In this document: piece after piece, positions 2,123 to 47,022 of the stretch
How positions within the stretch are numbered: the stretch's first letter is position 1
How the letters are laid out: each line of letters opens with the position of its first letter
From: Strigamia acuminata
Taxonomy: Eukaryota; Arthropoda; Chilopoda; Geophilomorpha; Linotaeniidae
Assembly (NCBI GenBank): GCA_949358305.1
Contig: OX442323.1
Location: 1,488,001-1,552,000, forward strand
Length of the DNA: 64,000 bases
Reading direction: 5' to 3'
Program-made: the position numbers and the translations under genes
The notes under the pieces: generated by a model
Databases searched by the model: none
Told to the model about the DNA's origin: nothing
Seen by the model: only the letters and a program-made list of their open reading frames with translations

Positions 2123-3800
2123 TATGACGGTTACGTCATAATGACTAAATTCACCGATAGATGGCGTTTTCTACTTTTAGCGGCAGATTTAACCAGAATA
2201 GAAGATGTAGTGCTAAAACTACATAAAACTGAGTTTTATGTGGAGCTAACATTATATCCTTGTATATTTATTAATTTAGAGGCCTTTCGGACCGTTTATG
2301 ACATTATTCCGAGAATATATCATAAACCCAAGTTGAAAGGTTACTCACCTTTGCGCACCTGCACCAATTATGGACACCCTGTGGATTTGAGTCAAAGACT
2401 TAATCCAAATTGTGTCCCCGCTATCCAGTTCCTGTCCTGACCTAGGAGAGAGCTAAGTCCTGGGTATCCAGTTCCTGTTTAGCATCTGGAAGTCATCTAA
2501 TTGAGCAAGTGGCCTCAGAATCCGACCTCTCACTCAGTGATTGGAGGGATTCCGAGGACTCATGTCCCCATTGGAGCATTGGAAGTTCCATTGTGCTCTA
2601 AGAGCATATATTCCCTTGCAACCGGAAATACAACGCTCTTGTCATGATATTTGTTGAACACTTACTTACTTGAGCCCGCATATATATTTATATGCATTCC
2701 CCGCCTTAAATGGTGCTGCTTACCATGACCTGTGGTGAAATGCGGATTGTTGCAAGACAATCTTTGGGTGCTATCGAAACGATAGCGCATCACCAACCTT
2801 TGATTGAGGTTGAAGCCACGAATAATGTTGTGTTTCGTGAGTACGACCCTGGGTGAAGAAACCTCCATCTTTGCCTGTGGTCATGACCATCCGGACTGGC
2901 GAGGAATCAGGCCTGGACGGGCATTTAGTACTCGCTAGGCTAGGTGACGCCGCGGGATTGGGCGATGGATGATGTTTGCCGCCAAATCCTGTGAGGCAGA
3001 CGGCGACTGTGTGATCGCGAGGATACCGGGCTGAGCGATGGATGACGCTTACCGTTCGGACCCGGTAGGATTTCATATTTGTGCTTTTACAGTTTGGATT
3101 TAATCAACTCAGTTGCATAAATCATTTCATCGTATCATGATGTAAAACAAAGTTTTACTCACGATAAAGAACTCATTCTACGTAGAACCGGAAGTAAACA
3201 TTACAGCAAACAAATGATAACCAAATTTGCTTGTTGTAATCCAGATGACAACATAATGACCTTTGGCTCACGACATATACTCATCGAGTTATGTGTGACG
3301 CCTGAATATCATTAATTCCCATATGATGAATTATTTACGTCATACTTGATAACAAAAGTATGCGTAATCCAAACAGCGTAACAGCAATACTCTATGCAAA
3401 TATCTTAGATATTTACATGAGATTGTGACAATGTGGAATAAGTCAACCGCACAGCCTCGGATACCGCCATTACAGAACCGAACCAGAGACCAGTCAGCCC
3501 GACGATAGATGACATCTTTTCTCCATGCGAATACGATGTATTGACCCATCTATTTCGGAGCCAAGGACACCAATCGTATTATCACTGGCCATCTTTGTAG
3601 GCCATTTTATTTATATAACGGAGTTATACTAAATAAATGTCATATGATTTGAGAAAACCCACGACTCTATTTTATTTACACCGTTGCAATAATTCACTTT
3701 CATTTATTGTTAAACTTGTTCTCGTGAGCTTTTAGTAGTTTGACATAGCTTTTCTCGACCAAGTATTGTTAGATATTTGCGCCGAAAGAACATTGTCACA
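2123..3800 (+). repeat. 5' LTR of element B
   Basis: 1678 bp. It begins TATGACGG rather than the usual TG and ends ATTGTCACA; the first six bases and the reverse complement of the end differ at one position. AATAAA in the context ACTAAATAAATG lies near 3631. Differences seen against the 3' copy are single bases near 3065, 3150, 3322 and 3667. Small open frames inside are not conserved genes. Confidence 0.92.
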
Positions 3801-14658: not shown

Positions 14659-14936
14659 TATGACGGTTACGTCATAATGACTAAATTCACCGATAGATGG
14701 CGTTTTCTACTTTTAGCGGCAGATTTAACCAGAATAGAAGATGTAGTGCTAAAACTACATAAAACTGAGTTTTATGTGGAGCTAACATTATATCCTTGTA
14801 TATTTATTAATTTAGAGGCCTTTCGGACCGTTTATGACATTATTCCGAGAATATATCATAAACCCAAGTTGAAAGGTTACTCACCTTTGCGCACCTGCAC
14901 CAATTATGGACACCCTGTGGATTTGAGTCAAAGACT
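14659..14936 (+). repeat. 3' LTR of element B, left part
   Basis: Matches 2123-2400 of the 5' LTR. It is cut by element C after GACT (14933-14936), which is repeated at 27810-27813. The LTR continues at 27814. Confidence 0.93.
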
Positions 14937-15758
14937 TGTGGTGACCCAGTTGGATAAGTGTCCCCCCAGGGCGGATACTTGTCCTATGAGTCACTATGAT
15001 TAAAGAGTCGTTCCCCCCCCCGAGTTGGCTCCACCTCCCCATGGCAGGTGTGTGCCCCGAGGGGGAGGAAGCGGCTGGTGGTCAGCCCCCATTGGTTGAT
15101 CGCCGGCCCTTCACCCCACTGCATAAAAGGCTGTGTTTCCCGCCTAAAGTCAGAACTTACACAAACGACACCAAGAACACAGCAACTACCTCACCGTCAG
15201 GCCAACTTCAACTACAAGTTAGGATTGATCGAGGATCGCTGAGTAAAGTGCAAACTGTAACTCTCACGAAGTCACTTGCGAGCTATTCCTGCGAAAGCAC
15301 GAGAATAGCCCTTGTGAAATCACCCAGAATAATCGCCCAGACGATTATTCGCCGAAGTAAGTGTCCGAGTGCTTTGTAGGGAACCCCAAAGTTCCTAGAC
15401 GAGGCCTCTGCGACGCTAAACAAACCCTAGACAACAGGCACGGATAGAAGACTCGAAAGAGCATTCCACCGCGTCCGTGAAGACGAATCCGTGACGAATT
15501 AACGACAACTCGAGACGCCGCCTTTGTTCCGCCGACCACGCGGAATCGACGACGCCATCTTGAGAAATCCTTTGTTCGACGCTGACCACGTCGACTCTAG
15601 AATTATTACTGAGTGTATTTTAAAGGCATAAAGCCTGGTGAATAAATTACCTGTTTATTTACATACATTTGGTATTCATTTGGGTATTTACATAATTGAT
15701 CACAGGTAAAGTATTACACGTTAGCGCTATTTAAACCTATACCAAGTAGGACGCGACA
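14937..15758 (+). repeat. 5' LTR of element C
   Basis: 822 bp, from TGTGGTGACC to GACGCGACA. A TATA-like GCATAAAAGG is near 15121 and AATAAA near 15640. The 127-codon frame inside occurs identically in both LTRs only because the LTRs are identical; it is not treated as a gene. Confidence 0.95.
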
Positions 15759-23474: not shown

Positions 23475-26400
23475 ATGGCCGATCGACGCAACCCACGATT
23501 AGAGCCGAGCGCATCGTCGAGAGACGAGAGCGACGGCCTAATCGTAAATGCAGAAGAAGATGAGAATTGGGACGAACAACCGCCGCTGCAGGTAAATTAG
23601 TGTGATTTCCCCAGAGAAATCACATAATTCTTTGAATCTGTTGCATCCAACCCAGATTGGAGCGTGACTTGTGACTGATATATTTCTTTCTGTTTTATTG
23701 TTGATTTAAGGCTGGCTAAAAACCCGAGAGTGGACCCAGATTCACCTCGGAGTCAAGGCCGCCAAAAAACTAGAACAAAGGAAGTGTTCGCGGAATGGCG
23801 TCGTGGCAAACCAAAACCAAAACTAAAGGTTTTCTTTCTTTTAAATTTAAACATCGTAATAAATTAAAATACGATTAGAGTTAAAATAAAAAAGTTTAAC
23901 GTAAGAAATTAAAATTTAACGATCGGTTTTGCCTGCGACCCCTTCCAAAAAAGCGGATCACCTGAGTTCAAAAGTAGTGTTGGATCAGCGCTACGACGGC
24001 GGAGATCATCGCAGAACTGCGAAACAAGAAAATAAGACCGACGGCCGCAACAAAAGAAAGGAGTTGCTGCCACCGTCGATCTTGAGCATATTTCTGATCC
24101 CCATCGTTGAACTGGGATTTATTATATTAATCTTGTGATCTAAAATTATTCAGGTCGACCCGCTAGAATCGTGGGACGCCCTGCCTCCGACGGCGTCAAC
24201 CGCCAACAACATCTTTCGCGGAGCCCTGCCGATCTACCTGCGGCAGGCCTATCCTGCGGAGACCAGCGCCTGGAAAATTCGATTGATGTATTCCAGGACC
24301 CTCGAAGAAAAATTCGAGCGATCGAAAACGCTGGTCGAGTGCATGACGAAGGAGATGAGGGAGCGAGTGGGGCCGCGGATCCCACCCGATGCGGATCCGC
24401 CGAGCCCCGTTTACTCCGGGTACCTGGAAGAGGCTTACCCAGGCACGGTGGCCGAGCTGCACACCTCCCATAGGTGGAGCGAGGCCCCGACCTTGGCAGC
24501 CCGCCAGAGAATAGTGGACGACGAGATCAAACGCTTAAAGCGCACCGAGACTCAAGGAGTAACCCGAGTTCTCGAGAGAAACGGTTTCTCCCCCGAAGAA
24601 ATCCGTAGATGGCTTCGCGACATCGAAGAAGATCATTTGACACCCAGATGGATACCACCGGCGAATTTTACGGCCACGCAGTCTGAGATGTGGCAGTTAT
24701 ACCACGCTGGTATCCTGGGAAGTCGCCGCCATCACAGAAGATCGAAGCGTCCGGCGGAGTCCGCCCCACGCGGACCCGCACGAAGAAGACAGGCCGTCTC
24801 CCCAACAGAGGCCGGCCCGTCAACGAGTCGCGACTACCGCAGCCGCTCGAGCAGCTCCAGTTCCCGAACTCGAGTTGTCGTGCGCTCGGAGTGTCGCCGA
24901 GTAGTAACGCTCGAGCCTGCCTCGCCAGACGACGCGCGGGCTGAGCGAACGGTCGAATCTTCCGCCCACTGGGCTGCGAGGACCGAGACACACCAAGATC
25001 GAGGAAAGAAAAGATCCTCGTTGTTTATGGCGATTACCACACAGTCGTCAGATCAATCCTCGTCGCGACGAACCGTCTCATCACACCAGAGACCGAATTC
25101 TCCGACGGACGTCCCCCAGAGGACGGCCCAACGAAGATCCGTCGCAGCCAGCACCCGGAGGAATCGAAAGCGCAAAGTACGTCAGAAGTTGCGAGCACAA
25201 TCCCTGATAGCTAAGGGATTAGAGAAGGAGCGAGAGATGGCCGCCGCGAAACGGTCCGAACCCCAGAGTCTCGGACCCACGGCTGGACCGTCCAGGCGCC
25301 AAGCAGAGATTGATTTGGGAGAGTTGACGGAAGAGCAAATGTCCCCAGATGAGTCGGACAAAGATGGGCCGGTTACAAAACAGGATCTGGCCGTAGCATT
25401 GAAGAACGCCTTCCGAGGATACGCGGCCAACCGGCCGTCGGGCTCAACACCGGCTGTGCCCACCGCGCTTGTGCCCCCACAAGTGCAATCGCGATGGCCG
25501 CCACTCCTCGAGGGTACAAACCCAGCCGTGACCGCGTGGACCCCTCCCCGGATGATTCCGGTGGGGGATCCAGCTCCGAAGCGGGTCAGATACGATAATC
25601 TACCCGGGCTGGGCCGTCCACCGTCACCCCCAACGCCACGAGTGTGTCGACCTTATCGCAACGCCGAATGGTACGCCCAGCGAGAGATGGACGCTCGATG
25701 CCGGCGTGAAGCGGCCTATCCCCCACTCGGCGAGCTACAAGAATATCTGGCCGAATACGAGAACCCCGCGATTGCCGAGTTGGCCATACGACAGGCCGAC
25801 GCCGCCCAAACTCACCACATCAATTGGGCGATCGAACAGATGCGGACGCTGTCACAACAATTCAGTGACAATCCGGACCGCGCTCACCCCTGCCATCGGA
25901 GCAGTTTGAATTTGGCTGTGACGAACGTACTGGCCCAGCTGCTGTCCCTGGGCGTCTTCTTGGACAGTCGGCAAGCTATGGCGGCCTGGACAATCGTCGA
26001 CCGTGAGGGAGTTCACCTTCCTCGGGCGTTGTACCAGGTATGGGCCGGATGGACTCCTGAGCCCGCCTCGCTGCGCTTCGACCTGGCCAGAAATACGGAA
26101 AACCCAGGCCTACAGTTTTCAAAGATGCGTTCGTTGGCATTCCGCTACCGGAACCCCGGTGTCCATCCTTCCTTGTTACGAACGATTCGGGAGGTTCCGG
26201 AGATACCGGGAACGGCGGCGAGCCTTCCACAGGCCATCGAGACCGCCCCCCCAGAGGCGGCGGTCCAACCATACATACCGACCCCAAAGCCGGTATTCCC
26301 GAAGGAGAAGCGACACGCGAATCGACCCATATTGATTCCGAAGCGTTCCAAGCGAGGACCCCGAACTCCTCCGCTGCCCTCTCCTTCACCACCAGCGGCA

Positions 26401-26940
26401 GGGCTGGCCGCTCTCTCTGTAGAGCCGGCTACGCCACCGTTGGAGAGCCCAATGGAGATTCCGCTCCCACCATCGCCTCCGCCGCCCCCAGCAGCGCAGC
26501 TTTATTTGAGGCTGGGAGTGGAATACCCCTTCCTTCAGATGTCGGAGTTCACGCGACAACGCATCGTTGACTCCGATGATCACGGCGAATCGATCCTCAA
26601 ATGGCTAAACAGAGAAGCCCGATCCACCATGGACGTCGTCTTCCATCGCCGTATCCTACGGGCCCACAGGAAACCCGGGTCGAGCGCCGAGTCACGAAGG
26701 ATCCGGCTCGTTCCAGACCGATTCCCGGCCTCTACCCGGATTTGGATCCATGAGCGTACGGGACTGATCGGCGAACCCGTCGGTGGTCACCCACAATATT
26801 TCATCAATGAGCGGCAGAATCCTGCGGATCTAACAACCTCTCTGCCCCCAGATTTACCACCGCCGCCACCGGCAGTGCCACCCGTGATCCTCCGCCCATG
26901 CAGAGGAGTGCTGCCGGCTCTTCGCAGAGGAGAGCGATGA
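23475..26940 (+). CDS. ORF3 of element C, large proline-rich protein, probably spliced
   Basis: The main frame is open from 24154, after a TTATTCAG acceptor, to the TGA at 26938-26940. An upstream exon 23475-23591 starts at ATG in the context GAAATGG and ends CAG before GTAAAT; it joins 24154 in phase 0, giving about 967 residues. A second coding-looking exon, 23711-23828, also ends in phase 0 but does not fit the 23475 frame on its 5' side, so alternative splicing is possible. The protein is rich in Pro, Arg and Ser (SRSSSSSSRTR near 24838), with a Trp/Leu region near 25900-26150 resembling ORF3 of B, and a proline-rich tail. No signal peptide or membrane span. Function unknown. Confidence 0.6.
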
Positions 26941-26987
26941 GAAAATTGAGATCGCTCCGATCCGAGATCGAAGCTGGAGGAGGGACG
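26941..26987 (+). other. C polypurine tract
   Basis: The purine-rich run GGAGGAGGGA at 26976-26985 lies two bases before the 3' LTR and is the likely plus-strand primer. Confidence 0.7.
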
Positions 26988-27809
26988 TGTGGTGACCCAG
27001 TTGGATAAGTGTCCCCCCAGGGCGGATACTTGTCCTATGAGTCACTATGATTAAAGAGTCGTTCCCCCCCCCGAGTTGGCTCCACCTCCCCATGGCAGGT
27101 GTGTGCCCCGAGGGGGAGGAAGCGGCTGGTGGTCAGCCCCCATTGGTTGATCGCCGGCCCTTCACCCCACTGCATAAAAGGCTGTGTTTCCCGCCTAAAG
27201 TCAGAACTTACACAAACGACACCAAGAACACAGCAACTACCTCACCGTCAGGCCAACTTCAACTACAAGTTAGGATTGATCGAGGATCGCTGAGTAAAGT
27301 GCAAACTGTAACTCTCACGAAGTCACTTGCGAGCTATTCCTGCGAAAGCACGAGAATAGCCCTTGTGAAATCACCCAGAATAATCGCCCAGACGATTATT
27401 CGCCGAAGTAAGTGTCCGAGTGCTTTGTAGGGAACCCCAAAGTTCCTAGACGAGGCCTCTGCGACGCTAAACAAACCCTAGACAACAGGCACGGATAGAA
27501 GACTCGAAAGAGCATTCCACCGCGTCCGTGAAGACGAATCCGTGACGAATTAACGACAACTCGAGACGCCGCCTTTGTTCCGCCGACCACGCGGAATCGA
27601 CGACGCCATCTTGAGAAATCCTTTGTTCGACGCTGACCACGTCGACTCTAGAATTATTACTGAGTGTATTTTAAAGGCATAAAGCCTGGTGAATAAATTA
27701 CCTGTTTATTTACATACATTTGGTATTCATTTGGGTATTTACATAATTGATCACAGGTAAAGTATTACACGTTAGCGCTATTTAAACCTATACCAAGTAG
27801 GACGCGACA
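26988..27809 (+). repeat. 3' LTR of element C
   Basis: 822 bp, identical by eye to 14937-15758. Followed by the GACT target duplication. Confidence 0.95.
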
Positions 27810-27813
27810 GACT

Positions 27814-29213
27814 TAATCCAAATTGTGTCCCCGCTATCCAGTTCCTGTCCTGACCTAGGAGAGAGCTAAGTCCTGGGTATCCAGTTCCTGTTTAGCATCT
27901 GGAAGTCATCTAATTGAGCAAGTGGCCTCAGAATCCGACCTCTCACTCAGTGATTGGAGGGATTCCGAGGACTCATGTCCCCATTGGAGCATTGGAAGTT
28001 CCATTGTGCTCTAAGAGCATATATTCCCTTGCAACCGGAAATACAACGCTCTTGTCATGATATTTGTTGAACACTTACTTACTTGAGCCCGCATATATAT
28101 TTATATGCATTCCCCGCCTTAAATGGTGCTGCTTACCATGACCTGTGGTGAAATGCGGATTGTTGCAAGACAATCTTTGGGTGCTATCGAAACGATAGCG
28201 CATCACCAACCTTTGATTGAGGTTGAAGCCACGAATAATGTTGTGTTTCGTGAGTACGACCCTGGGTGAAGAAACCTCCATCTTTGCCTGTGGTCATGAC
28301 CATCCGGACTGGCGAGGAATCAGGCCTGGACGGGCATTTAGTACTCGCTAGGCTAGGTGACGCCGCGGGATTGGGCGATGGATGATGTTTGCCGCCAAAT
28401 CCTGTGAGGCAGACGGCGACTGTGTGATCGCGAGGATACCGGGCTGAGCGATGGATGACGCTTACCGTTCGGACCTGGTAGGATTTCATATTTGTGCTTT
28501 TACAGTTTGGATTTAATCAACTCAGTTGCATAAATCATTTCATCGTATCATGATGTAAAACGAAGTTTTACTCACGATAAAGAACTCATTCTACGTAGAA
28601 CCGGAAGTAAACATTACAGCAAACAAATGATAACCAAATTTGCTTGTTGTAATCCAGATGACAACATAATGACCTTTGGCTCACGACATATACTCATCGA
28701 GTTATGTGTGACGCCTGAATATCATTAATTCCCACATGATGAATTATTTACGTCATACTTGATAACAAAAGTATGCGTAATCCAAACAGCGTAACAGCAA
28801 TACTCTATGCAAATATCTTAGATATTTACATGAGATTGTGACAATGTGGAATAAGTCAACCGCACAGCCTCGGATACCGCCATTACAGAACCGAACCAGA
28901 GACCAGTCAGCCCGACGATAGATGACATCTTTTCTCCATGCGAATACGATGTATTGACCCATCTATTTCGGAGCCAAGGACACCAATCGTATTATCACTG
29001 GCCATCTTTGTAGGCCATTTTATTTATATAACGGAGTTATACTAAATAAATGTCATATGATTTGAGAAAACCCACGACTCCATTTTATTTACACCGTTGC
29101 AATAATTCACTTTCATTTATTGTTAAACTTGTTCTCGTGAGCTTTTAGTAGTTTGACATAGCTTTTCTCGACCAAGTATTGTTAGATATTTGCGCCGAAA
29201 GAACATTGTCACA
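27814..29213 (+). repeat. 3' LTR of element B, right part
   Basis: 1400 bp matching 2401-3800 of the 5' LTR with about four substitutions. Ends ATTGTCACA and is followed by AAAT, the target duplication in A1. Confidence 0.93.
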
Positions 29214-35389: not shown

Positions 35390-35521
35390 TTTGCACGTCG
35401 ATATATCGAAGACAGGGACAACATGCGCCATGGCCACCCGATCGATTTGCGCCAGCGTATAGTGTACGAGATCTTACACGAGAAGTTGATCCCATTCGAG
35501 AAGGAGGAAAACCAGCCTTAA
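35390..35521 (+). pseudogene. C-terminal remnant of the Ulp1-like ORF3 in A1
   Basis: In-frame relic with ARRYIEDRDNM near 35393-35425, matching VRRYVEDRDLM just downstream of the catalytic Cys in A2 ORF3, then LRQRIVYEI and LIPFE against LRLRFVYEI and ILPFE, ending in TAA at 35519-35521. The catalytic His, Asp, Gln and Cys regions are absent. It shows that A1 descends from an element that carried this gene. Confidence 0.75.
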
Positions 35522-36003: not shown

Positions 36004-36505
36004 TGTTACGCGGTTGGCGAGCACACTGTAAGCCAGTTGTCGCCACCACGCTTCCGTACTCATTTGATCTGAATTAACTCATTAAATTCCCAATAGAGTT
36101 CGCCTTAAGCGAATGAGGTAATCAGTTTACCTATCAATCACTAATAGAACAACCCAAACCTATTTAAGTCTGGGTTTGACTCAGAGATGACACAGAGCTT
36201 GTCAGGCAGTTATTGCAGTGGCATCTCAAGGTTTTAATGTGATAGAATTTAGTGTTATTCATCCTCATAGAATTAAGATAGTTTTAGTTTAGTCTTAAGT
36301 TATTCTTTAGTTTATTATTATTTGGAATTGCTTTATGTTTTATAACAGAATAAATATATTTTATATAATTTAAACATAACCAATGAGTCCTTCTTATTTA
36401 CACCCCAAGTCAAGTCATTAAATAAATGCAATTAGTCTTTGATAAGACACAGTCCAAACCTAAGTTAAACACGTGGGTAAACAGTGGTGATTTATCCACG
36501 TAACA
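36004..36505 (+). repeat. 3' LTR of element A1
   Basis: 502 bp, TGTTACG to CGTAACA, followed by ATAT. Nearly identical to 1217-1719 except for the last ~45 bases. Confidence 0.92.
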
Positions 36506-36509
36506 ATAT

Positions 36510-38020
36510 GTAGTGCAGGTCAACCGTACCAAGTTCGATTTTCATCACATCTTTCAGATGGGTCCATTGCTTTATTTTGTGAAACATCGGAATCCCTATA
36601 ACAGTCAATAGCAAAGGAACTTGCTTGTTCACCACAACATAATCGAGCAGGACAAATTGTTGATAAGTTTGCTTTCAGCTGTTCCATTCATGTAAAATGG
36701 CCCCAACAAATGGTGGAATGCTCCAGAGCATCACCTGCTCCATCTTCACCAAACGCACGATCAAACAAAACGTTCGATGAGCGTGTTTGAAAACTTGCTA
36801 GGACGCCTCCCTTGTCGCAGAAACTTCACACGTACACGCCCAATTACACCTTGAAACAACCCAAACACAACACAAAACACCGGAGCGGCGAATCAACTCT
36901 AAACGTCGTCCACGTACAATCCACACGACCAAAATTGCACAATATCACCAAAATTAATCAAACACTCACACAGAGAAATCTACACTGTCCCACTGCACAA
37001 CCATAATATATCATGGATACCACTGATAAGTTCTTGTAGACTTATATAATTCCAAATTGGGCCATTCGAACTCATACACACGTTTATTCATGAGATCTCG
37101 TCTCTACTACTCTCTGTTGCACATTACCGTGGCAACCACGTAAAACAATGTATAACAGTTTGATTGGATTTGAATATTAGCATAATAAAAGAAGTATAAA
37201 CTTCTTGTAGTATAGACTTCAGCCCACAACTAATATTTAATACTCCGTATATATTTAATTGAACAATGTATACATATTTTCAACACCCTTAGTAACCCTT
37301 CTTGTATTGTTGGGCCCGTTTTATTGATATAAACTCGGTATAAACAGAATGGACATCAAAACTGCCAAAATCCATATTCCATCACCAAAAACAGTTTTTC
37401 AAACTATTACCATTTTTCCAATCCATTACTAGGACGAGGAAATAACAACCAGCCTCGCAATCAGCACATGTTGAACCAAAGATATAAAATTCGAGCAAAA
37501 TTCAATTCCCGAATTCGAAATTTAGCCTTGAGAAAATGTGAAATATGGTTTGTGTCTAAATTATAATTTGTGTGTGCAAAGATCACCATATTGTAACAAA
37601 CTAACAAGTAACAACCATCACAAGTGAAGATGACGTAAGATTAGGCTACAATTTTAAATGCATTTAAATTTAAAAAAAAATATGCACCTTAATTGAATTC
37701 AAGTAATTTTAGAAAATTGTTCTTTTAGTTAGGAACATGATCAAATGTGTTTCAATTGAGATTTACTTTGGAACTGAAATTATGAACTCAGAATGACAAA
37801 CAAAAGTTTAAGTTTGAAAATCGAAATTGAGTCACCTCGTGCGAAGTTAAAATCAATGTATCTCGTAGACAGCTTTCGATTAGTTAGAAACTTCATGCGG
37901 TAAATAACAAAAAAATAATGTTAGTTTACAGTAAACTTTACTATTTAAAACAAACAAACGCAAAGTAGAAATACAACAAATTTTCAGTATAAAAACGTGT
38001 AAGCTATGTTGCAATTATAT
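36510..38020. other. Intergenic DNA between A1 and A2
   Basis: No gene supported. The minus strand near 36540-36690 is open and Cys-rich but ends in a stop near 36531 and has no splice context I trust. The rest is AT-rich. ATAT at 38017-38020 is the target duplication of A2. Confidence 0.4.
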
Positions 38021-38522
38021 TGTTACGCGGTAGAGCCGTACCGTGTATCGGCTGGCTCTGCTCGCTCTGTTTAGGCATTTAATACAATGAATTCTCACTA
38101 GACGGCGCTGTGCACCTAATTAGATGCACAGACCGTTCAACTTAGTTGATAGGGGGAATAGGAGTTTACTTAGTGAGTTGATTAAGCCAGAGAGCTCAGA
38201 TCTCTTTTGAGTCTCAACCTGTTACCTTCACCTACTACTGCCAGCCGGTTGACGGTCAGGCAGGACTAGGTTTTCTAAACTGAATTGAATTGACAACAGC
38301 ATCATCCTTATTTAGTTATTTATTTGATTTGAATGAATGATTTATATTTTAGGTTAATAAATGAACAAATGTAATAAGAGCTGTTGACCGAACATTTACA
38401 TTAGTAAATGTCCGACTTTGAATAATAAAGCCAGTAGGCATTTTACATATAAAACCCTGTGTCATTCTTGATCAAATTCATGTCACGTAGGACTAAATCA
38501 ATCCCCATTTAGCCACGTAACA
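38021..38522 (+). repeat. 5' LTR of element A2
   Basis: 502 bp, TGTTACGCGGTAGAG to AGCCACGTAACA. Contains the hairpin ACATTTAC-ATTA-GTAAATGT near 38389-38408 and AATAAA near 38420. Shares only its ends with the A1 LTR. Confidence 0.95.
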
Positions 38523-39066
38523 ACTGGTGGAGATGCGGTCTCGATTGTAGCCCGTTTAGATTTAAAATCCCATTAAAATTGGATTAAAATTGCCAAAATA
38601 ATTTAATAAAAATCTAGAAATAATTAGTGAAAATTGCTGATTTTATAGCAATTATCTTGAATGACTCAGAGTTGGTAAAAACAAGTGAAGTCACAGCTTG
38701 AATATTTAATGTCATTGTGTGAAATAATTTGCATTTTGGAAATGAAAATAGAGTTTAATTGTTGATTAGGGATTAATAAATTGATTTACAATTGTTATAT
38801 TTAGAATAAATAAAATATATAGTGTATAAATACTAATTTTGATATTTATTTACAGGAAATTTTGTGAATTTATAGGAATTGAAAAAATTGTTTTGAAATG
38901 TTATTGATGGATTATTTTCTTTGTAATTTTGAGTGTAATATTTATGTATTATATGCTAATAACACTTTAAGTTTTCAGGTAATGAATTCGTGTTAGTGTA
39001 GTCAGTGTTTAGAAAGTGAATCAGTGCTAGTGAAAGTGATAAAAAGCGCAATATAAAGGCTTTAGT
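38523..39066 (+). other. A2 leader with candidate primer-binding site
   Basis: TGGTGGAGATGCGGTCTC at 38525-38542 is the likely primer-binding site; its tRNA was not identified. The rest is AT-rich. A CAG/GTAATG donor-like site near 38979 could feed the ORF3 acceptor at 44727. The gag frame has TAA at 39040-39042 and no ATG before GTG 39067. Confidence 0.55.
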
Positions 39067-40398
39067 GTGGCTAAGCCAATAAAATTGTCGCAGTTCAATA
39101 CGGATAATCTTCAAGATTTGCAAAATTGGGAATTGCCCGAACCGGATTTGAAATTTATCGCTACTAGAAAGAAAAGGAACACTGGATCTGAATCTGACAC
39201 TGAACCTCAGAAGGAAGATAAGGAAGTCCGATCTCAACCTCAATCAATCCTACAGAAGTTGGATTTCGCTACTCCGTTAATAAAATTAATTCCACAAAAA
39301 GGTTTAGAAGAAATAATAAAGACATTTACACCAGTAAAGACTAAACCAGTTCCAACACCAATTGAACCAAATTTTCCAAAAATGACATCATCACAGACTC
39401 CAACGGACGTATTGACCGACTTACTGAAGAGTTTGGTAGTGCAGAAGCGACCTGTTGTCACTTATGATACAGAAAAGGGCAACATCGACCAATGGCTTGT
39501 GGCATATGAAGCTACAATAGGAACAGATGATGAGAGAGTAAAACATCTAGCATTAGCCTTAAAGACTGATGGATTGGCATGGTTTGTGGAACAACTAAAG
39601 AAGAATCCGACATGGAAATGGACGGATTGGAAACCACAGATCGAGAAAAAATTTAGAAGAAGCCAAGAAAATGTTTACAATACTCTCCACTTCATGAAAC
39701 ACAAAGAGGGTACAGCAGATGCCTTCATGAAGAAAGTCTTGGCCGAATGTGCGTTTATTCTACCAGAAATGACTGAAACTCAGAAAATAAATTATGTTTA
39801 CCAAGGTTTGAAGCCTGCAATGCAGAAGATGATGATAACGGTATTTCCATCGACGTTAGAAGAAATGGAACAGAGACTTAAATTGTATGAAAGTCACAAA
39901 ACAGAAGAACCAGCGGATCTACTGCTCACAATGTTCAAAAAAGTTGTAGATGAAAAGGTGAACCCTACGACAACAGGTATACTGTCTGGAACAGGGGGAT
40001 CCCCAGTAAGCTACGCCGAGTTATTAGCTGAAAATATCAAATTAAAACAGCAAAAGCTCGTAAGTGAGTCAGTAGAGCCACAACAATTGGTTCCATTATT
40101 CATACAAGGCGAGTGGTATATTCCAGCATTGCAGCGCGGACAGAACTTTAGAGGTAGATACAACAGAGGTAGACAGCGGTCAAATAGCAGTCCGACAACA
40201 ACGCGTTCATGTGGATGTTGGCATCGTTATGGTTGTGAACATAACACATCAGCGCCACAGGAGCAACAATCTCAAGAAAATAGAGGGAACCCAAACAACA
40301 GAAGGTGGTTTAAGAAGAAAAGGACACAAGGGGGTGGTAAAACTAACCCTAATCCTAAGCAGAACCCACAACAAGGTCAACAAGAAGAGGAAAACTAG
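39067..40398 (+). CDS. gag of element A2, non-AUG start
   Basis: 443 residues from GTG 39067; the first in-frame ATG is about 108 codons in (FPKMTSS), yet the preceding region is homologous to A1 Gag, so initiation must be at GUG or through a spliced leader. The gag core has DQWLVAYEA, AWFVEQLKKNP and FRRSQENV at residues ~138-205. The nucleocapsid region has RSCGCWHRYGCEH (C-x-C-x-H-x3-C) near residue 380 in place of a standard knuckle, with Asn/Arg-rich flanks and a basic tail. It should assemble the particle. TAG at 40396-40398 overlaps the start of the pol frame. Confidence 0.9.
   Translation: MAKPIKLSQFNTDNLQDLQNWELPEPDLKFIATRKKRNTGSESDTEPQKEDKEVRSQPQSILQKLDFATPLIKLIPQKGLEEIIKTFTPVKTKPVPTPIEPNFPKMTSSQTPTDVLTDLLKSLVVQKRPVVTYDTEKGNIDQWLVAYEATIGTDDERVKHLALALKTDGLAWFVEQLKKNPTWKWTDWKPQIEKKFRRSQENVYNTLHFMKHKEGTADAFMKKVLAECAFILPEMTETQKINYVYQGLKPAMQKMMITVFPSTLEEMEQRLKLYESHKTEEPADLLLTMFKKVVDEKVNPTTTGILSGTGGSPVSYAELLAENIKLKQQKLVSESVEPQQLVPLFIQGEWYIPALQRGQNFRGRYNRGRQRSNSSPTTTRSCGCWHRYGCEHNTSAPQEQQSQENRGNPNNRRWFKKKRTQGGGKTNPNPKQNPQQGQQEEEN
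40389..40395 (+). promoter_or_regulatory. Candidate gag-pol junction signal, A2
   Basis: G GAA AAC directly before TAG, at the same place as A AAA AAC in B. It is a poor heptamer by the X XXY YYZ rule, so slippage or stop-restart at TAGTG are both open. Confidence 0.35.
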
Positions 40399-43300
40399 TG
40401 GGTCGGCCACAAAGAAGATGTCACCATCAACAAGGAAGATGTTGCCATCCAAAGAAGAAAAGAAAAAGTAGAAGAGAGAAGATAATCGTAGTCAAAATGA
40501 ACATTTCAGAATCTCTATTGGAAATTCCAGTAATAGTGAACAACATGGAAGTCAAGGCAGTTATGGACACTGGAGGAAAACGCAACGTTATCAGCGAAGA
40601 GCTTGCTGAAGCTTTACAGTTGAAGTACCCGCCAAGCCCAAATATACGATTACAAGGGGTAAGCGGAGAACTCGTGACTCCAATAGGAAAAGCCAAGATG
40701 AACATTACAATTGGTGAATTAACATACAGGATCGAGGTCCTGATTGTTAAAGGATTTCATTATGAATTACTGCTAAGTGACCCATTCATGCTGTTCGCGA
40801 AGTGCGTGTTAGACTACGACAAACAAAAAATCTTTGTGGGCCGAACTAGTGGAAAGGAAGTGTCATTTCCAATGAATAAAACTTTTGTTGATCAGAATTA
40901 TGTTGCGAGGGTAATGAAGAACATCACAATTCCACCAATGCATGAGTGCATTGTTCCCATCTATTTGAATAAAGCAATAACATTGGACATGTTTGTACAA
41001 CCATTACATAATGTCACTGATAGATTTGCTGTGATAGGTTGTAAAACTTTAACAGATTTCAAGAACGGAAAAGGCATCATTCGAGTGGCTAACCCAACCA
41101 AGAAGACAGTCTTTCTGAAGGAGAAGTCAGCAATCGCAAAAGCTTATTATGTGGTTGATGTTGGGGTGTTTGACGAAAAACAGGTACACTGTTTTGACTT
41201 TGACTCCTCAATAGCAAAAGACAAAATGAATAAAGACCAACAAGAGCAAATGCGACAACTTCTTCAAAAGAATCAAGACAGATTTGCTGTTTCTGACAAG
41301 GATTTGGGAAGAGTTCAAGTGTATAAGCATAAAATCGATACTGGAGACCATGAACCAATACATTTGCAACCGTATCGTCGTTCTATGAAGGAAAAAGAAG
41401 TCGAAGCTGAGGAAACAAAGAAATTGCTTGATATGGGAGTGATAAGGGAATCAGAAAGTCCCTGGAGCGCGCCTGTATTGCTAATAAAGAAAAGAGATGG
41501 TAAGTGGAGATTTTGCGTTGATTGGAGACGTTTGAATGCGATAACAAAGAAAATGGTGTACCCATTGCCAAGAATAGATGACACTTTAGATCAGCTGGCA
41601 GGTGCACAATTCTTCTCCATGATGGATCTTATTCAAGGATATTATCAAGTCGAAATAGATGAACAAGATCGCGAAAAAACAGCATTTACCACTTCAAGCG
41701 GACATTTTGAGTTTAACGTCCTAGGAATGGGATTATGCAATAGTCCAGCGGCTTTTCAAAAGTTAATGAATAAAGTTTTAGGCAACCTCCTAGGCAAAGT
41801 TTGTATAGCGTACATTGATGACCTTATCATTTTCTCTAAAACATTCGATCAGCATTTGAAAGATCTAGACAATGTTTTCGACAAGCTTAGACAATCTAAC
41901 TTAAAGGTGAAGTTGAGCAAGTGCACATTTGGGACAAACACCATTAAGTATTTGGGACATGTCGTGGACTCTGAGGGTATATCACCAGACCCTAGGAACT
42001 TGGAATCCGTCGCGAAGTTTCCAGTTCCTACTAACCTCAAACTTCTTCGAGGATTCATAGGGCTCTGTTCGTATTACAGGAAGTTCATTCCAAGTTTTGC
42101 GGACATATCCAAGCCCTTAGTCAATTTGACGAAGAAGGACGAGAAATTTGATTGGGGCCCACCTCATGACAAGGCCTTCAAAACATTGAGGACCGCCCTT
42201 ATCACCGTGCCAGTGCTTGCGCACCCTAATTTTGAAGAACCCTTCATGGTATCGACAGACGCGAGCGCATATGGTCTTGGAGCAGTGTTGAAACAGAAGA
42301 TAAACAAACAAGAACATGTGATAGCTTATGCCAGCAGACTTCTCAGCCAAGCAGAACAGAATTACACAGCCACGGAAAGGGAATGTCTGGCTATTCTGTT
42401 TGGAATTGAAAAGTACCGACCTTATCTGTATGGTAAGAAGTTCCAGATAATTACAGACCATTCGGCACTTCAATGGCTAAAATCAGTCAAAAACCCCAAT
42501 GGCAGACTAGCTAGATGGAGCCTACAGCTAGTAGACTTTGATTTCGATGTGATCTACAAGAGCGGAAAAGCGCACAAAGATGCCGACGCCTTGAGTAGGA
42601 TTCCAGAAGATTTAAGCGAGGAAGAAAACAAAATAGTTCCCTCACTTTTACTCGAACAGCTCGACCTTTCTGCTGAGCAGCGTAAGGACAAGAAGCTACT
42701 GGAATTGATCACCGCAATGAATCAAGTAGAGCAACTTCCGAAGAAGAGAAGACGTCCTCTAAAGCAGTTCGTCCTTCTCGATAACGTGTTGTTTAGGAAG
42801 AAAAATTCTCTGAATTCCCTAGACACGGAAGTAAATCTGTTATACGTTCCACAGCATTTGAAAACGGCCGTTCTTGAAGAAATGCATGATGGACTGACGG
42901 GTGCTCACTTGGGCCTAAACAAAACATGGAAGAGAATGAGAACAAGATTCTTCTGGCCCCGGATATATAAAGACGTTAGAAATTACGTACTTTCTTGTCC
43001 ACATTGCGCGAGCTCGAAATCAATGACGACAGCGCCAAAAGGTTTAATGCAGCCGTGGTCTACGATATCTAAGCCTTTCGAGAGGATTGGAATCGACACA
43101 CTGGGAAGTTTTCCGACCTCCGACAAGGGCAACAAGTATGTTTTCGTAATGACAGATTATTTGTCGCGGACAGTGATTGCTAGAGCAGCTCCAGCATCAA
43201 CAGCGTTGGAAGCAGCTAGAACTCTGCTTTATGAGTTAATGTTGAAGGAAGGCAGTCCGAGAGAAATCCTGAGCGATAGAGGCACAGAATACAGAAACAA

Positions 43301-44342
43301 AATGGTGGAAGAAGTATCAAATATGTTTAAAGCCCTACATAAAACCACTTCAGGGTACCATCCAAGGACCAATGGCCTCACAGAAAGATTCAATGCGACG
43401 TTTGCAAAAATGTTGCAGATTTATGTTGATAAGGACCAGAGGGACTGGGATGATTTTTTGCCATTTTTGCTTTTCTCGTATAATACCGGTGTGCACGAGA
43501 CGACGGGATATACACCTTATTATCTTTTGAAAGGATATGAAGTTGATTTGAACGTGGACGTAAACCTCAACTTACCTCAAAAAGAATTTACCTTGCGAAC
43601 CTCAAAATTCATCAGAGAAGCTAGGAAAATAGCAAATGAAAGGTTGGAATGGCAAGGAGAAAAAAGCAGAAAAAGATTCGATCAAGGCCGAGTTCATGTG
43701 GAATTTGACCCAGGAGAATTAGTATATCTCAAAACACCCAATAGAAAAGTTGGGTTAAGTGAAAAACTCCTGCCACAATTCTCAGGCCCATACGAAATAG
43801 TAAGAAGAACCGCGCCAAATGACTACGAAATTAGAAGTTCAAATGGAAAGAAAACAGATATTGTTAATATTGAACGATTAAAACCGTATAAACCCAGAGA
43901 AGAAATTCCAGCGGAGATATTAGAAGAATTGACAGCTAAAAAAGTCACATTTGCTGATGAAACTGCAACACAAAGTGAAAAACAACAAGAAATTGAAGAA
44001 AACACGTCAATTTCGCCAATTCCGATCGCTAAAGAACGATTTATTAGCGATGACGATCAAATTTCGTTAAAAACACTCTTTGAACCTGAAGAAAATACAA
44101 CAAAAGTGTCAAATTTCCCAATTCCAAGCGAAAAAGAGCGATTAAAAGCGCTCTATGGACCGAAAGAAATTATGGAAAGATGGCAAAACGAAGACGAACG
44201 GAAAAACGAAGAAAATCAATTGCGAAAATCGCCGACAGGTGTCGCTGACGCAGTCGATGACGCGTCGCCACCTGAAATCGAGAGTTTCCGGTCACGTCGC
44301 CTTCGCAAACAGGCTCGTCGTGACTACAGTGGATTGTGTTAA
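40398..44342 (+). CDS. Gypsy Pol polyprotein of element A2
   Basis: 1314 codons in the -1 frame relative to gag, starting at the gag stop. The N terminus is very basic with Cys-His pairs (GRPQRRCHH, then CCHPKKKRK), resembling a nuclear localisation signal. Protease reads DTGG near residue 56, where A1 has DTGA. Reverse transcriptase has FCVDWRRLNA and YIDD near 472. RNase H has TDASAYGLG near 620. Integrase has its His pair near 831, CPHC near 870, Asp near 899, Asp near 960 and Glu near 995. GPYEIV is near 1131, and the charged tail ends RKQARRDYSGLC. The frame is intact. The only oddity at a catalytic motif is the second Gly in the protease. Confidence 0.95.
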   Translation: MGRPQRRCHHQQGRCCHPKKKRKSRREKIIVVKMNISESLLEIPVIVNNMEVKAVMDTGGKRNVISEELAEALQLKYPPSPNIRLQGVSGELVTPIGKAKMNITIGELTYRIEVLIVKGFHYELLLSDPFMLFAKCVLDYDKQKIFVGRTSGKEVSFPMNKTFVDQNYVARVMKNITIPPMHECIVPIYLNKAITLDMFVQPLHNVTDRFAVIGCKTLTDFKNGKGIIRVANPTKKTVFLKEKSAIAKAYYVVDVGVFDEKQVHCFDFDSSIAKDKMNKDQQEQMRQLLQKNQDRFAVSDKDLGRVQVYKHKIDTGDHEPIHLQPYRRSMKEKEVEAEETKKLLDMGVIRESESPWSAPVLLIKKRDGKWRFCVDWRRLNAITKKMVYPLPRIDDTLDQLAGAQFFSMMDLIQGYYQVEIDEQDREKTAFTTSSGHFEFNVLGMGLCNSPAAFQKLMNKVLGNLLGKVCIAYIDDLIIFSKTFDQHLKDLDNVFDKLRQSNLKVKLSKCTFGTNTIKYLGHVVDSEGISPDPRNLESVAKFPVPTNLKLLRGFIGLCSYYRKFIPSFADISKPLVNLTKKDEKFDWGPPHDKAFKTLRTALITVPVLAHPNFEEPFMVSTDASAYGLGAVLKQKINKQEHVIAYASRLLSQAEQNYTATERECLAILFGIEKYRPYLYGKKFQIITDHSALQWLKSVKNPNGRLARWSLQLVDFDFDVIYKSGKAHKDADALSRIPEDLSEEENKIVPSLLLEQLDLSAEQRKDKKLLELITAMNQVEQLPKKRRRPLKQFVLLDNVLFRKKNSLNSLDTEVNLLYVPQHLKTAVLEEMHDGLTGAHLGLNKTWKRMRTRFFWPRIYKDVRNYVLSCPHCASSKSMTTAPKGLMQPWSTISKPFERIGIDTLGSFPTSDKGNKYVFVMTDYLSRTVIARAAPASTALEAARTLLYELMLKEGSPREILSDRGTEYRNKMVEEVSNMFKALHKTTSGYHPRTNGLTERFNATFAKMLQIYVDKDQRDWDDFLPFLLFSYNTGVHETTGYTPYYLLKGYEVDLNVDVNLNLPQKEFTLRTSKFIREARKIANERLEWQGEKSRKRFDQGRVHVEFDPGELVYLKTPNRKVGLSEKLLPQFSGPYEIVRRTAPNDYEIRSSNGKKTDIVNIERLKPYKPREEIPAEILEELTAKKVTFADETATQSEKQQEIEENTSISPIPIAKERFISDDDQISLKTLFEPEENTTKVSNFPIPSEKERLKALYGPKEIMERWQNEDERKNEENQLRKSPTGVADAVDDASPPEIESFRSRRLRKQARRDYSGLC

Positions 44343-44734
44343 GGTTTTCTGAGACGAACCGGGTTTACTGTGTGACTCAAAGAAACCTAAAGCATTAATA
44401 ACAGCAGCAGTTGATTTGTGTGTGATTCCGTAAGTGAAGAGAGTGAAATTTAGAACGAATTTGGCGAGCAAATAGCTTAAAAACGAAACGAATAACATCG
44501 CGAAATGGAAATTTAGGCTTAAATAATTGTGTTAAAACTTCAAAATGAAATTTTAGTGTGTGCATACATTATCAAGTGACTAATTAGTTAAAAAATTGTT
44601 AAATTTAGTGTAAATTAGTGCAACATGAAATTTTAAATGAAATAACGAATGGAAATTGAAAAATTTTTGTGAAAATTTTGAATTAATGAAGTAATTTATT
44701 TTATTTTCTTTTCAAATAATATATTAGAATCCGA
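44343..44734 (+). other. A2 pol-ORF3 spacer with splice acceptor
   Basis: AT-rich. The pyrimidine-rich tract TTTATTTTCTTTTC near 44700 and AG at 44726-44727 come seven bases before the ORF3 ATG, so a spliced subgenomic mRNA is plausible. Confidence 0.5.
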
Positions 44735-46108
44735 ATGGACGAAATGGCAAGCAAATTTGATCGGATGGATGTGCGTAGTGATAGTGACAGCGATGCGGAT
44801 TCGGTTTGCTCGATGCAAGTGGGCGATCTTTTGGAACGTCAACTTAAGAAAGGCGATGACTTGGAAATTTATTTAGCAAATAAGCCGAGCACAAGTAAAA
44901 CTTTGGACGAATTGGTTAACTGCCCACGCCCGTTTACAGAAGGAAAACAAAAGGCGGAGGAAGACAAAAAGAAATATGCAGGACCATTAACAAAGGGTGA
45001 AGAAGGCTTATTGCGTCGTCGTCGTAAAAATCGACAATTGAAACGAGATAAGAAAGCACAAAAGAAGAAAGTGTTTAATGAGCAATCGAAAAGAATCCGG
45101 GAAGAAGAAATGCGTCACACCGTTGATCGAAACAAACGCCGATTAAATGATTTGCGAATGGAGCACCGGAATATGGTCAACGCCATTAGAGCCAGGAAAT
45201 TAAAAGGAGTGATGGGATTGCCCGACTATCAGTTGTGGAGAACAGGGGCGAATGCTTTGCTGATCCAGGAGGCGAAAATAAGGAAAAACATTTTAAAAGC
45301 CATCGCCTTAGCGAGAAGAGAGTCCTTCCAGGACCCTAGTGTAGTATTTCCTACTCCTATACGGGTATACCGTGTGGAGTTGGACGCTGCACGACAGGTC
45401 CAGGCTCTCGGACTTGCATTAGACTATAGTAATGCGCCAAAATATGACTTAGCATTCGACGCCGTAGGTTGTCCGCCGATTAAAGTCATGAACTATCAGA
45501 TGGCAGCATTAGGCGACCTAACGCCGGGACGACAGAGCTGGACGTATGACAGCGTCGTTGATCACTACCTCCAACTGTTAGAAGAGCGATATCCCATATT
45601 GGCACCAATTCAATCTGAGTGGGTCTTCAAAATGGTGGACCCAGCTAAACGAAAGGAAGCGATCTATTGGCTAATGAAGAGACTTCCAAGTGCTCAAAAG
45701 AAGATTTGGGTGTTTCCAGTTCCTATTGAAGAGCATTGGCAGCTTTTCATAGTGGATTGGCGGAAAAAGCCAACCCAATACGTGCTTTATGACCCAAGTG
45801 GACCAATAGAGCGCACATATCCAAAGTGGGAATCTTTAAGATACTCGTTGATGGATGCAGGAGTAAAGTTTCCAAACAAATTCATACGTTGGGACCCGCC
45901 ACGTATGCACCAATTGGATAATGACAGCTGTGGCCCAACCATACTCTACTTCGTTAGAAGATACGTTGAAGACCGGGACTTAATGCAGTTTGGGGAGCCG
46001 TGTGAGTTACGCTTACGATTTGTGTATGAGATTGCAAATCGTGAAATTCTCCCATTCGAGTTGATCAAAGAAGAGGATAAGAAGGATCAAGCGGAAGGAG
46101 GAGAGTGA
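44735..46108 (+). CDS. Ulp1/SENP-type (C48) cysteine protease, third ORF of A2
   Basis: 457 residues from the ATG at 44735 (context CCGAATGG), after a likely splice acceptor. Residues ~1-70 are acidic and Ser-rich. Residues ~85-150 are strongly basic and coiled-coil-like (RRRRKNR, QSKRIREEEMR). The C-terminal half is a Ulp1-like peptidase: His334 in EEHWQLFIVDW, Asp353 in VLYDPSG, Gln393 in HQLDNDSCG and Cys399. The His-Asp (19) and Gln-Cys (6) spacings fit the family. In cells this family removes SUMO or related ubiquitin-like proteins. A role in countering SUMO-based silencing, or in polyprotein processing, is inference. It lies inside the element, between pol and the 3' LTR and in the same orientation, so it is an element gene. 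A1 keeps a relic. Confidence 0.88.
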   Translation: MDEMASKFDRMDVRSDSDSDADSVCSMQVGDLLERQLKKGDDLEIYLANKPSTSKTLDELVNCPRPFTEGKQKAEEDKKKYAGPLTKGEEGLLRRRRKNRQLKRDKKAQKKKVFNEQSKRIREEEMRHTVDRNKRRLNDLRMEHRNMVNAIRARKLKGVMGLPDYQLWRTGANALLIQEAKIRKNILKAIALARRESFQDPSVVFPTPIRVYRVELDAARQVQALGLALDYSNAPKYDLAFDAVGCPPIKVMNYQMAALGDLTPGRQSWTYDSVVDHYLQLLEERYPILAPIQSEWVFKMVDPAKRKEAIYWLMKRLPSAQKKIWVFPVPIEEHWQLFIVDWRKKPTQYVLYDPSGPIERTYPKWESLRYSLMDAGVKFPNKFIRWDPPRMHQLDNDSCGPTILYFVRRYVEDRDLMQFGEPCELRLRFVYEIANREILPFELIKEEDKKDQAEGGE

Positions 46109-46516
46109 AGTGAACTTTAACTTCTTTAAGTGAATAAGTGTAAAATCAACACGAACTTTGAACATTTTTTTTTGTGTGTGTGTTTTTTTTATTTTATAGA
46201 AAATTGAAAACTGAAAAAAAGTAATATAAAACAAAAAAACCAAAAAGTGTTGTCATTGATGAAAAGTGTTAATTTTATTTAATTTTAAACTTTGAATATT
46301 ATTTCCAATGTAAAAGTGTAATAAAAAGTGACTATGACATTTATAAACATTGAAAAGTGAGTTATATGATATTTTTGTAAAAATAAGGATGATGAAAAGA
46401 GATTCTCAAAATTGTAAAATTGAGTTTATGATTTGAATTTTTTAATGTGAAAGGAGATGCGTTAGTTAGAACAATTCATTGTTTTTCGAGAGACCGAAAA
46501 AATTAAAGGGGGGGGC
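46109..46516 (+). other. A2 3' noncoding region and polypurine tract
   Basis: AT-rich, no gene. The run AAAGGGGGGGGG near 46505-46515 ends one base before the LTR. Confidence 0.65.
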
Positions 46517-47018
46517 TGTTACGCGGTAGAGCCGTACCGTGTATCGGCTGGCTCTGCTCGCTCTGTTTAGGCATTTAATACAATGAATTCTCACTAGACG
46601 GCGCTGTGCACCTAATTAGATGCACAGACCGTTCAACTTAGTTGATAGGGGGAATAGGAGTTTACTTAGTGAGTTGATTAAGCCAGAGAGCTCAGATCTC
46701 TTTTGAGTCTCAACCTGTTACCTTCACCTACTACTGCCAGCCGGTTGACGGTCAGGCAGGACTAGGTTTTCTAAACTGAATTGAATTGACAACAGCATCA
46801 TCCTTATTTAGTTATTTATTTGATTTGAATGAATGATTTATATTTTAGGTTAATAAATGAACAAATGTAATAAGAGCTGTTGACCGAACATTTACATTAG
46901 TAAATGTCCGACTTTGAATAATAAAGCCAGTAGGCATTTTACATATAAAACCCTGTGTCATTCTTGATCAAATTCATGTCACGTAGGACTAAATCAATCC
47001 CCATTTAGCCACGTAACA
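46517..47018 (+). repeat. 3' LTR of element A2
   Basis: 502 bp, identical by eye to 38021-38522, followed by ATAT. Confidence 0.95.
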
Positions 47019-47022
47019 ATAT

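What the first reader, a model, noticed from the sequence alone, without database searches (positions are those of the whole stretch)
44735..46108. A gypsy LTR retrotransposon that carries its own Ulp1/SENP-like protease
A2 encodes, between pol and the 3' LTR and on the sense strand, a 457-residue protein with the complete C48 catalytic set (His334, Asp353, Gln393, Cys399) and a basic coiled-coil N terminus. Ulp1-like genes are known as captured cargo in plant DNA transposons; I do not know of one as a regular third gene of an animal Ty3/gypsy element. SUMO is a major part of transposon silencing, so an element-encoded deSUMOylase would be a direct counter-defence. It could instead mature Gag or Pol. 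Both roles are inference.
Basis: partly seen in the sequence, partly recalled or inferred. Interest (0 to 1): 0.88.

Follow-up and report, generated by a model that had tools for sequence, protein, structure and literature searches.

The report
Jumping gene carrying a SUMO-type protease
A retrovirus-like jumping gene in an animal genome regularly carries, as a third gene, an enzyme built like the cell's SUMO-removing proteases, which may help it to escape the cell's silencing machinery; the enzyme's activity and its role have not been tested.

The parts
38021..47018 (+). Complete Ty3/gypsy-type LTR retrotransposon A2
   Evidence: LTR pair, TSD, gag, pol, ORF3
38021..38522 (+). 5' LTR, 502 bp, TGTTACG...CGTAACA
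   Evidence: identical to the 3' LTR
46517..47018 (+). 3' LTR, 502 bp
   Evidence: identical to the 5' LTR
38017..38020 (.). target-site duplication ATAT, left copy (right copy 47019-47022)
   Evidence: read
38523..38545 (+). probable primer-binding site region; primer tRNA not determined
   Evidence: position next to the 5' LTR; inference
38979..38984 (+). best donor-like site of the 5' leader (cag|GTAATG); candidate only
   Evidence: home-made matrix, score 7.9; pol holds three higher-scoring sites
39067..40398 (+). gag ORF (443 aa as listed; true start not determined)
   Evidence: Ty3_capsid match E 7.6e-4, below cut-off
40398..44342 (+). pol ORF: aspartyl protease (DTG at residue 57), RT (YIDD 472), RNase H, integrase
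   Evidence: Pfam; motifs
44726..44727 (+). AG of a 3'-splice-site-like sequence 7 nt before the ORF3 ATG; weak in A2, strong in some sister groups
44735..46108 (+). ORF3: SENP/Ulp1-like protease, 457 aa
44990..45214 (+). ORF3 residues 86-160: basic helical region
   Evidence: net charge +11 to +19 in 34 of 34; helices in model
45368..46051 (+). ORF3 residues 212-439: SENP1-like catalytic domain
45734..45736 (+). His334 codon
   Evidence: invariant in 34 of 34
45791..45793 (+). Asp353 codon
   Evidence: invariant in 34 of 34
45911..45913 (+). Gln393 codon (oxyanion-hole residue by recalled SENP numbering)
   Evidence: invariant in 34 of 34
45929..45931 (+). Cys399 codon (nucleophile)
   Evidence: invariant in 34 of 34
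46505..46516 (+). polypurine tract next to the 3' LTR
   Evidence: read
35390..35515 (+). relict of ORF3 (C-terminal codons only) in the neighbouring element A1 (LTRs 1217-1720 and 36004-36506)
   Evidence: tblastn 54% identity, E 5.6e-9; interval shared by further loci

Best explanation
ORF3 is a regular third gene of a Ty3/gypsy lineage and encodes a SENP/Ulp1-type (C48) cysteine protease. SHOWN by sequence and model: position between pol and the 3' LTR, complete catalytic set, SENP1-like fold, presence in eight groups of elements of this genome, purifying selection, repeated loss by internal deletion. INFERRED: it is made from a spliced subgenomic mRNA, as env is in retroviruses; the basic N-terminal helices take it to the nucleus or to the element's RNA; there it removes SUMO (or a related modifier) from host proteins that keep the element silent. 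It acts in trans, so ORF3-deleted copies can live off intact ones. My split: about 0.95 that it is a SENP-class protease gene kept by selection, about 0.5 that its main job is anti-silencing deSUMOylation.
Against: No activity, substrate, localisation or transcript evidence. A SUMO-contact Asp of SENP1 as I recall it (D468, aligned with residue 272) is Asp in only 17 of 34, so SUMO is not assured as substrate. ORF3-less copies amplified, which also fits a dispensable gene. The splice signal is weak in A2's family (rank 46-79 in eight F1 loci), the site was chosen as the best AG in the last 90 nt, and the matrices were recalled approximations. Only intact ORFs entered the conservation and selection counts, which favours selection. 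The role of the Ulp1 part in plant KIU is itself unknown.
Confidence: 0.5

Rival explanations
1. ORF3 acts on the element's own life cycle rather than on chromatin: it removes SUMO or a related modifier from Gag, integrase or import factors, aiding particle assembly, nuclear entry or integration.
For: Same fold and active-site evidence; a basic N terminus could bind the element's RNA; the Ginger authors propose an active role of Ulp1/OTU domains in transposition, for example through DNA repair (PMC2836005, passages).
Against: ORF3-deleted copies multiplied, several with open pol frames of 1310-1360 residues, though complementation in trans could explain that.
Confidence: 0.22
2. ORF3 is a maturation protease that cuts the Gag or Pol polyprotein, like the CE-clan proteases of adenoviruses, poxviruses and African swine fever virus.
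Against: Pol carries its own aspartyl protease with DTG; no Gly-Gly site lies in the same context in Gag or Pol of A1 and A2 (two elements only); the SENP1 match is about ten Z units better than the viral ones; deleted copies keep pol.
Confidence: 0.1
3. ORF3 is a passenger or a gene useful only now and then, captured from a host SENP gene and on its way out.
For: 68 of 134 integrase copies have no ORF3 detected within 4 kb; at least three kinds of deletion; ORF3 changes faster than the other genes (42% identity to A2's for the F3 group, against 77% for Pol and 57% for Gag of A1, an F3-type element).
Against: Purifying selection in six groups, invariant active site over groups at 32% identity, 80 of 94 matches free of stops, 42 of 51 close copies of A2's integrase with ORF3 downstream.
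Confidence: 0.13
4. The protease domain is a binding module (for SUMO or NEDD8) and the N-terminal basic region does the work; catalysis is secondary.
For: An open 329-aa form exists at two loci; at one of them the match skips residues 252-388, the catalytic core.
Against: All four catalytic residues invariant in 34 of 34 intact proteins.
Confidence: 0.05

Closest known systems
SENP1/SENP2/Ulp1 SUMO proteases (MEROPS C48)
   Different: Encoded inside an LTR retrotransposon; basic helical N terminus without a Pfam match; substrate unknown
Ulp1-carrying VANC (KIU/Kaonashi) genes of plant Vandal (Mutator-like) DNA transposons
   Same: Mobile element with a Ulp1-like gene beside its transposition genes, linked there with loss of silencing of related copies (review PMC13317346, passages)
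   Different: Plant DNA transposon; no LTRs, no gag-pol; DNA-methylation context
Ginger1 DNA transposons (Gypsy-type integrase fused to a Ulp1 or OTU domain)
   Same: Gypsy-like integrase together with a Ulp1 domain in animals (PMC2836005, passages)
   Different: Cut-and-paste DNA element, one fused protein, no RT or LTRs
Polinton/adenovirus group Ulp1-like cysteine protease
   Same: Ulp1-like protease in elements that also carry a retrovirus-like integrase (PMC10175614, passages)
   Different: DNA elements with capsid genes and DNA polymerase; related viral folds match far less well than SENP1
Non-env ORF3s of bdelloid rotifer LTR retrotransposons (GDSL esterase, DEDDy exonuclease)
   Same: Enzymatic third gene after pol in an LTR element (PMC5408684, passages)
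   Different: Other enzymes; the authors report no significant departure from neutrality there
C48-carrying Cryptons of oomycetes
   Same: Extra C48 peptidase in a mobile element (PMC3212892, passages)
   Different: Tyrosine-recombinase DNA transposon

Membership tests
SENP/Ulp1 (C48) protease | His-Asp-Cys triad plus oxyanion Gln in the right order and spacing | tested here: met
   H334, D353, Q393, C399 line up with SENP1 and are invariant in 34 of 34
SENP/Ulp1 (C48) protease | Catalytic-domain fold | tested here: met
SENP/Ulp1 (C48) protease | Score above the Pfam PF02902 cut-off | tested here: inconclusive
   Full-length A2 protein: no hit at E<=1; pieces E 0.05 and 0.02, below cut-off; of seven group representatives one passes (L016, 22.5 against 20.7 bits), five score below it and L027 shows no C48 hit
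SENP/Ulp1 (C48) protease | Two tryptophans of the di-Gly tunnel (role recalled) | tested here: met
   W269 and W335 invariant in 34 of 34
SENP/Ulp1 (C48) protease | Cleaves SUMO precursors or conjugates | not testable with these tools
   needs protein
Ty3/gypsy LTR retrotransposon | LTRs, TSD, PPT, pol order PR-RT-RH-INT | tested here: met
Ty3/gypsy LTR retrotransposon | Primer tRNA identified | not tested
   PBS region read only
Ty3/gypsy LTR retrotransposon | Place in an RT tree of named clades | not tested
   no tree was made
Retroviral env-like third gene | Transmembrane segment or fusion-protein homology | tested here: not met
   Highest 19-residue hydropathy mean 1.53 over 34 proteins (hydropathy only); fold is C48
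Retroviral env-like third gene | Spliced subgenomic mRNA | tested here: inconclusive
   3' splice-site-like signal near the ATG, strong in F5, F9 and F10, weak in A2's family; no RNA data
CE-clan viral maturation protease | Conserved Gly-Gly type sites in the polyproteins | tested here: inconclusive
   No GG site in the same context in A1 and A2; each Gag has its own; only two elements compared
Ulp1-carrying VANC anti-silencing gene (KIU) | Lies in a Mutator-like DNA transposon, with a VANC part | tested here: not met
   LTR element with gag-pol; a VANC part was not searched for specifically

The most novel reading that the evidence does not exclude
An animal LTR retrotransposon lineage encodes its own deSUMOylase as a trans-acting antagonist of SUMO-dependent silencing. 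It is shared like a public good: families that make it are exploited by deletion derivatives that have dropped it and multiplied, much as env-less retroviruses do.
Probability: 0.35. Interest if true: 0.92.

Novelty: new variant of a known kind. Interest (0 to 1): 0.77.

Why it matters
To my knowledge few animal retrotransposons carry a gene aimed at host silencing. A SENP-class enzyme kept by selection as a third gene would give a direct test of whether SUMO-dependent silencing is fought by elements. Intact and ORF3-deleted lineages side by side in one genome offer a natural comparison of their expression and spread.

Tried and rejected
Protein database: P0001 and its residues 205-457 found no relative at E<=0.001 and E<=1, while the pol search found 3264 proteins among 7976 scored candidates (the Pfam column of the 120 listed rows shows no C48; named rows are from a pseudoscorpion, a lancelet, spiders, a tick and Daphnia). 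The search needs shared 5-residue words, so this does not show that ORF3 is confined to this species. Scans of viral contigs and of prokaryote genomes with the family profile gave no relative.

Single-sequence structure prediction was poor (pLDDT 45) and was not used for fold searches. The viral structure library gave 2 matches at E<=0.001, both phaeovirus proteins, best E 2.8e-6, weaker than Ulp1/SENP in the PDB (1.1e-8). Families missing from the VIA list are not excluded.

A retro-spliced origin of the ORF3-less copies was considered: the A1 junction is not GT-AG; for L078-L081 the left edge lies in diverged sequence and was not settled to the base. That ORF3 was gained by ORF3-less elements is unlikely, since the relict in deleted copies is the C-terminal end of the SENP-like domain.

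Descent from a host SENP gene was not resolved: the profile's best scores among the genome's other C48 places were about 22 bits (L077, which also has a PHD finger; L061/L062, long ORF). The genome is searched exon by exon, so a host SENP may be missed. Host species not identified. Third ORFs of the nested elements gave no PDB hit at E<=1.

Counting limits: the genome tool scores only the best candidates, so 94, 95 and 95 matches and 134 are lower bounds; 35 of 68 ORF3-less integrase copies remain unexplained, 9 of them close copies of A2's. Eight of 48 loci had no intact ORF of 440 aa or more and were left out of the alignment (L009, L018, L028, L029, L030, L040, L047, L048). L082 and L083 came after the alignment and are counted apart.

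Full report
WHAT IS THERE. Window 44735-46108 (+) is an uninterrupted ATG-started ORF of 457 aa. It starts 392 nt after the pol stop and ends 408 nt before the 3' LTR of element A2, 38021-47018. The two LTRs are 502 bp, identical, TG...CA, flanked by ATAT; a polypurine tract abuts the 3' LTR. Pol has aspartyl protease, RT, RNase H, H2C2 and rve integrase domains. The element looks complete and, by its LTRs, recently inserted. The host is an animal: exons of an OATP transporter and of a KDM8-like gene lie downstream.

HOW REGULAR. In the genome (237.5 Mb, 157 contigs) P0001 matches 94 places, 80 of 94 without a stop inside. Queries from two sister groups extend this to 106 distinct places, fragments included. 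I read 48 loci (8 returned, 40 fetched); 40 of 48 hold an intact ORF of at least 440 aa, giving 34 distinct proteins. I sort these into A2's family (F1) and seven other groups (F3-F7, F9, F10) at 32-42% identity to A2. H334, D353, Q393, C399, W269 and W335 are invariant in 34 of 34; residue 272 is Asp in 17 of 34. Of 14 loci whose upstream frame was examined, 10 (from F1, F3, F4, F5, F9 and F10) show the same Pol tail (SRRLRxQxR...) ahead of ORF3; in L026 (F6), L027 (F7), L031 (F9) and L042 (F10) the simple scan did not show it.

SELECTION. Nei-Gojobori dN/dS within groups: F3 0.06 (21 pairs), F9 0.07 (36), F10 0.12 (15), F5 0.14 (10), F4 0.19 (3); the one F1 pair in that set has a single nonsynonymous difference and says nothing. 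Counting two-state, single-step codons over these five groups, 410 are synonymous and 99 nonsynonymous; neutral expectation is 74-75% nonsynonymous, and each group departs from it (p 9.5e-6 to 5.4e-73; 87 codons with more than one step or state skipped; copies are not independent). For A2's own family I then took two older intact copies: A2 differs from L082 by 60 synonymous and 7 nonsynonymous codons (14 multi-step codons left out) and from L083 by 70 and 8 (17 left out); both keep the active site. Only intact copies were used, which favours this result. Between groups dS is mostly saturated. ORF3 diverges faster than the other genes: F3 ORF3 is 42% identical to A2's, while A1, an F3-type element, is 77% identical to A2 in Pol (RT 93%) and 57% in Gag.

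EXPRESSION (INFERRED). I took the best-scoring AG in the last 90 nt before the ORF3 ATG. It lies 5-7 nt before the ATG in F1 and F3-F7 (15 in L014, whose first ATG is changed) and 26-55 nt before it in F9 and F10. By a home-made matrix it ranks first of 233-284 AG sites of the locus in three of five F5 and five of six F10 loci, 3rd-6th in nine F9 loci, 14th-33rd in seven F3 loci, but only 46th-79th in the eight F1 loci, A2's family. A spliced subgenomic mRNA, as for env, is plausible but unproven. Hydropathy shows no transmembrane segment, so ORF3 holds the place of env but is not one.

LOSSES. This is the main result against a simple story. A search with A2's integrase gave 134 matches (81-100% identity); 66 of 134 have an ORF3 match within 4 kb downstream on the same strand and 68 do not. 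Among close copies (integrase at least 91% identical) 42 of 51 have it; among those at 83-85%, 8 of 45; at 81-82%, 16 of 38. At 33 of the 68 the pol-LTR interval matches a deletion derivative, by a coarse position rule; 35 stay unexplained. All five ORF3-less copies read in detail (A1 and L078-L081) keep the last 20 to 44 codons of ORF3 and lack its start and catalytic core. The junctions look like at least three kinds (A1; L079/L080 with L081 close; L078); A1's is not GT-AG. The A1 interval recurs without interruption at nine loci, A1 included, at 82% identity or more, plus one at 77%, and the other type at 23 loci with 101-167 nt where two intact loci have 1423-1424. Several of these copies have pol frames open for 1310-1360 residues. 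So ORF3 was present before these losses, is often lost, and copies without it spread. This fits a product that works in trans, or one that is dispensable at times.

MECHANISM. The enzyme class, the invariant di-Gly tunnel tryptophans (role recalled), the conserved basic N terminus and the loss pattern lead me to a nuclear Ub-like protease, most likely a deSUMOylase, that relieves silencing. SUMO promotes silent chromatin in yeast, plants and animals, and Argonaute-directed silencing in C. elegans needs SUMOylated HDA-1 (PMC8131101, abstract and passages). The nearest functional parallel is plant KIU: Vandal elements with Ulp1-carrying VANC genes lift silencing of related copies, although the role of the Ulp1 part is unknown (review PMC13317346, passages). 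Gag/Pol maturation is less likely: an aspartyl protease is present and no Gly-Gly site lies in the same context in Gag or Pol of A1 and A2. Action on the element's own proteins remains a serious rival.

WHAT IS KNOWN. Ulp1 domains are reported in Mutator-like elements, Ginger1 transposons, Cryptons and the Polinton/adenovirus group (PMC2836005, PMC3212892, PMC13317346, PMC10175614; passages). This genome also has a six-copy element with C48 and weak, below-cut-off Mutator-transposase and PHD matches (L054 scanned). LTR retrotransposons with enzymatic ORF3s other than C48 are known in bdelloids (PMC5408684, passages); a review of plant additional ORFs holds none of the terms protease, peptidase, Ulp and SUMO (PMC7264820, term search). 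Ten paper searches showed, in titles and opening lines and in passages of the papers that I opened, no LTR retrotransposon with a Ulp1/SENP gene. The library holds open-licence papers only and I did not open every listed paper, so an earlier notice, for instance in Repbase, may exist.

VERDICT. Observation confirmed; identity and regularity well supported; role inferred. A new variant of a known kind: captured Ulp1-class proteases in mobile elements, here to my knowledge for the first time as the third gene of an animal LTR retrotransposon.

Noticed in passing
C1:34398664-34399602 (+) and C3:5410211-5411047 (-), own genome: Open 329-aa ORF3 forms; at the first place the match covers residues 1-251 and 389-454 of the query only, so the catalytic core seems to be missing in frame; at the second the match covers 1-279.
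   Followed up: no
window 1217-36506: Nested insertions: A1 is interrupted by an element with about 1.7-kb repeats (2123-3800 and 14659-14937 plus 27809-29213), which in turn holds another with 826-bp LTRs (14933-15758, 26984-27809) (my reading of the repeats).
   Followed up: partly
window 12364-14055 and 24283-26940: Two more ORFs after pol in the nested elements, 563 and 885 aa, without Pfam hit above cut-off or PDB hit at E<=1 and without the C48 motif set: possible third genes of other kinds.
   Followed up: partly
L054-L059: Six copies of an ORF with a C48 domain and weak Mutator-transposase and PHD matches (L054 scanned); C48 with a PHD finger also at L077 (above cut-off) and L063 (below it).
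   Followed up: partly
L061, L062 (C1:22252003, C1:33635212): Two copies of a long open frame (1828 aa) with a C48 domain and no other Pfam match in the 858 aa of L061 scanned; the ORF3 profile scores them about 22 bits over two stretches.
   Followed up: no
C3:25299725-25301383 and C3:25597924-25599048, own genome: Tandem ubiquitin-like repeats, probably polyubiquitin genes; other single Ub-like matches that may include SUMO at C9:7980929, C13:1385664, C3:1901167 and C5.
   Followed up: no
L079-L081, A1: Right-hand deletion points of ORF3 lie within about ten codons of each other in different deletion types, which suggests a hotspot, perhaps of template switching.
   Followed up: partly
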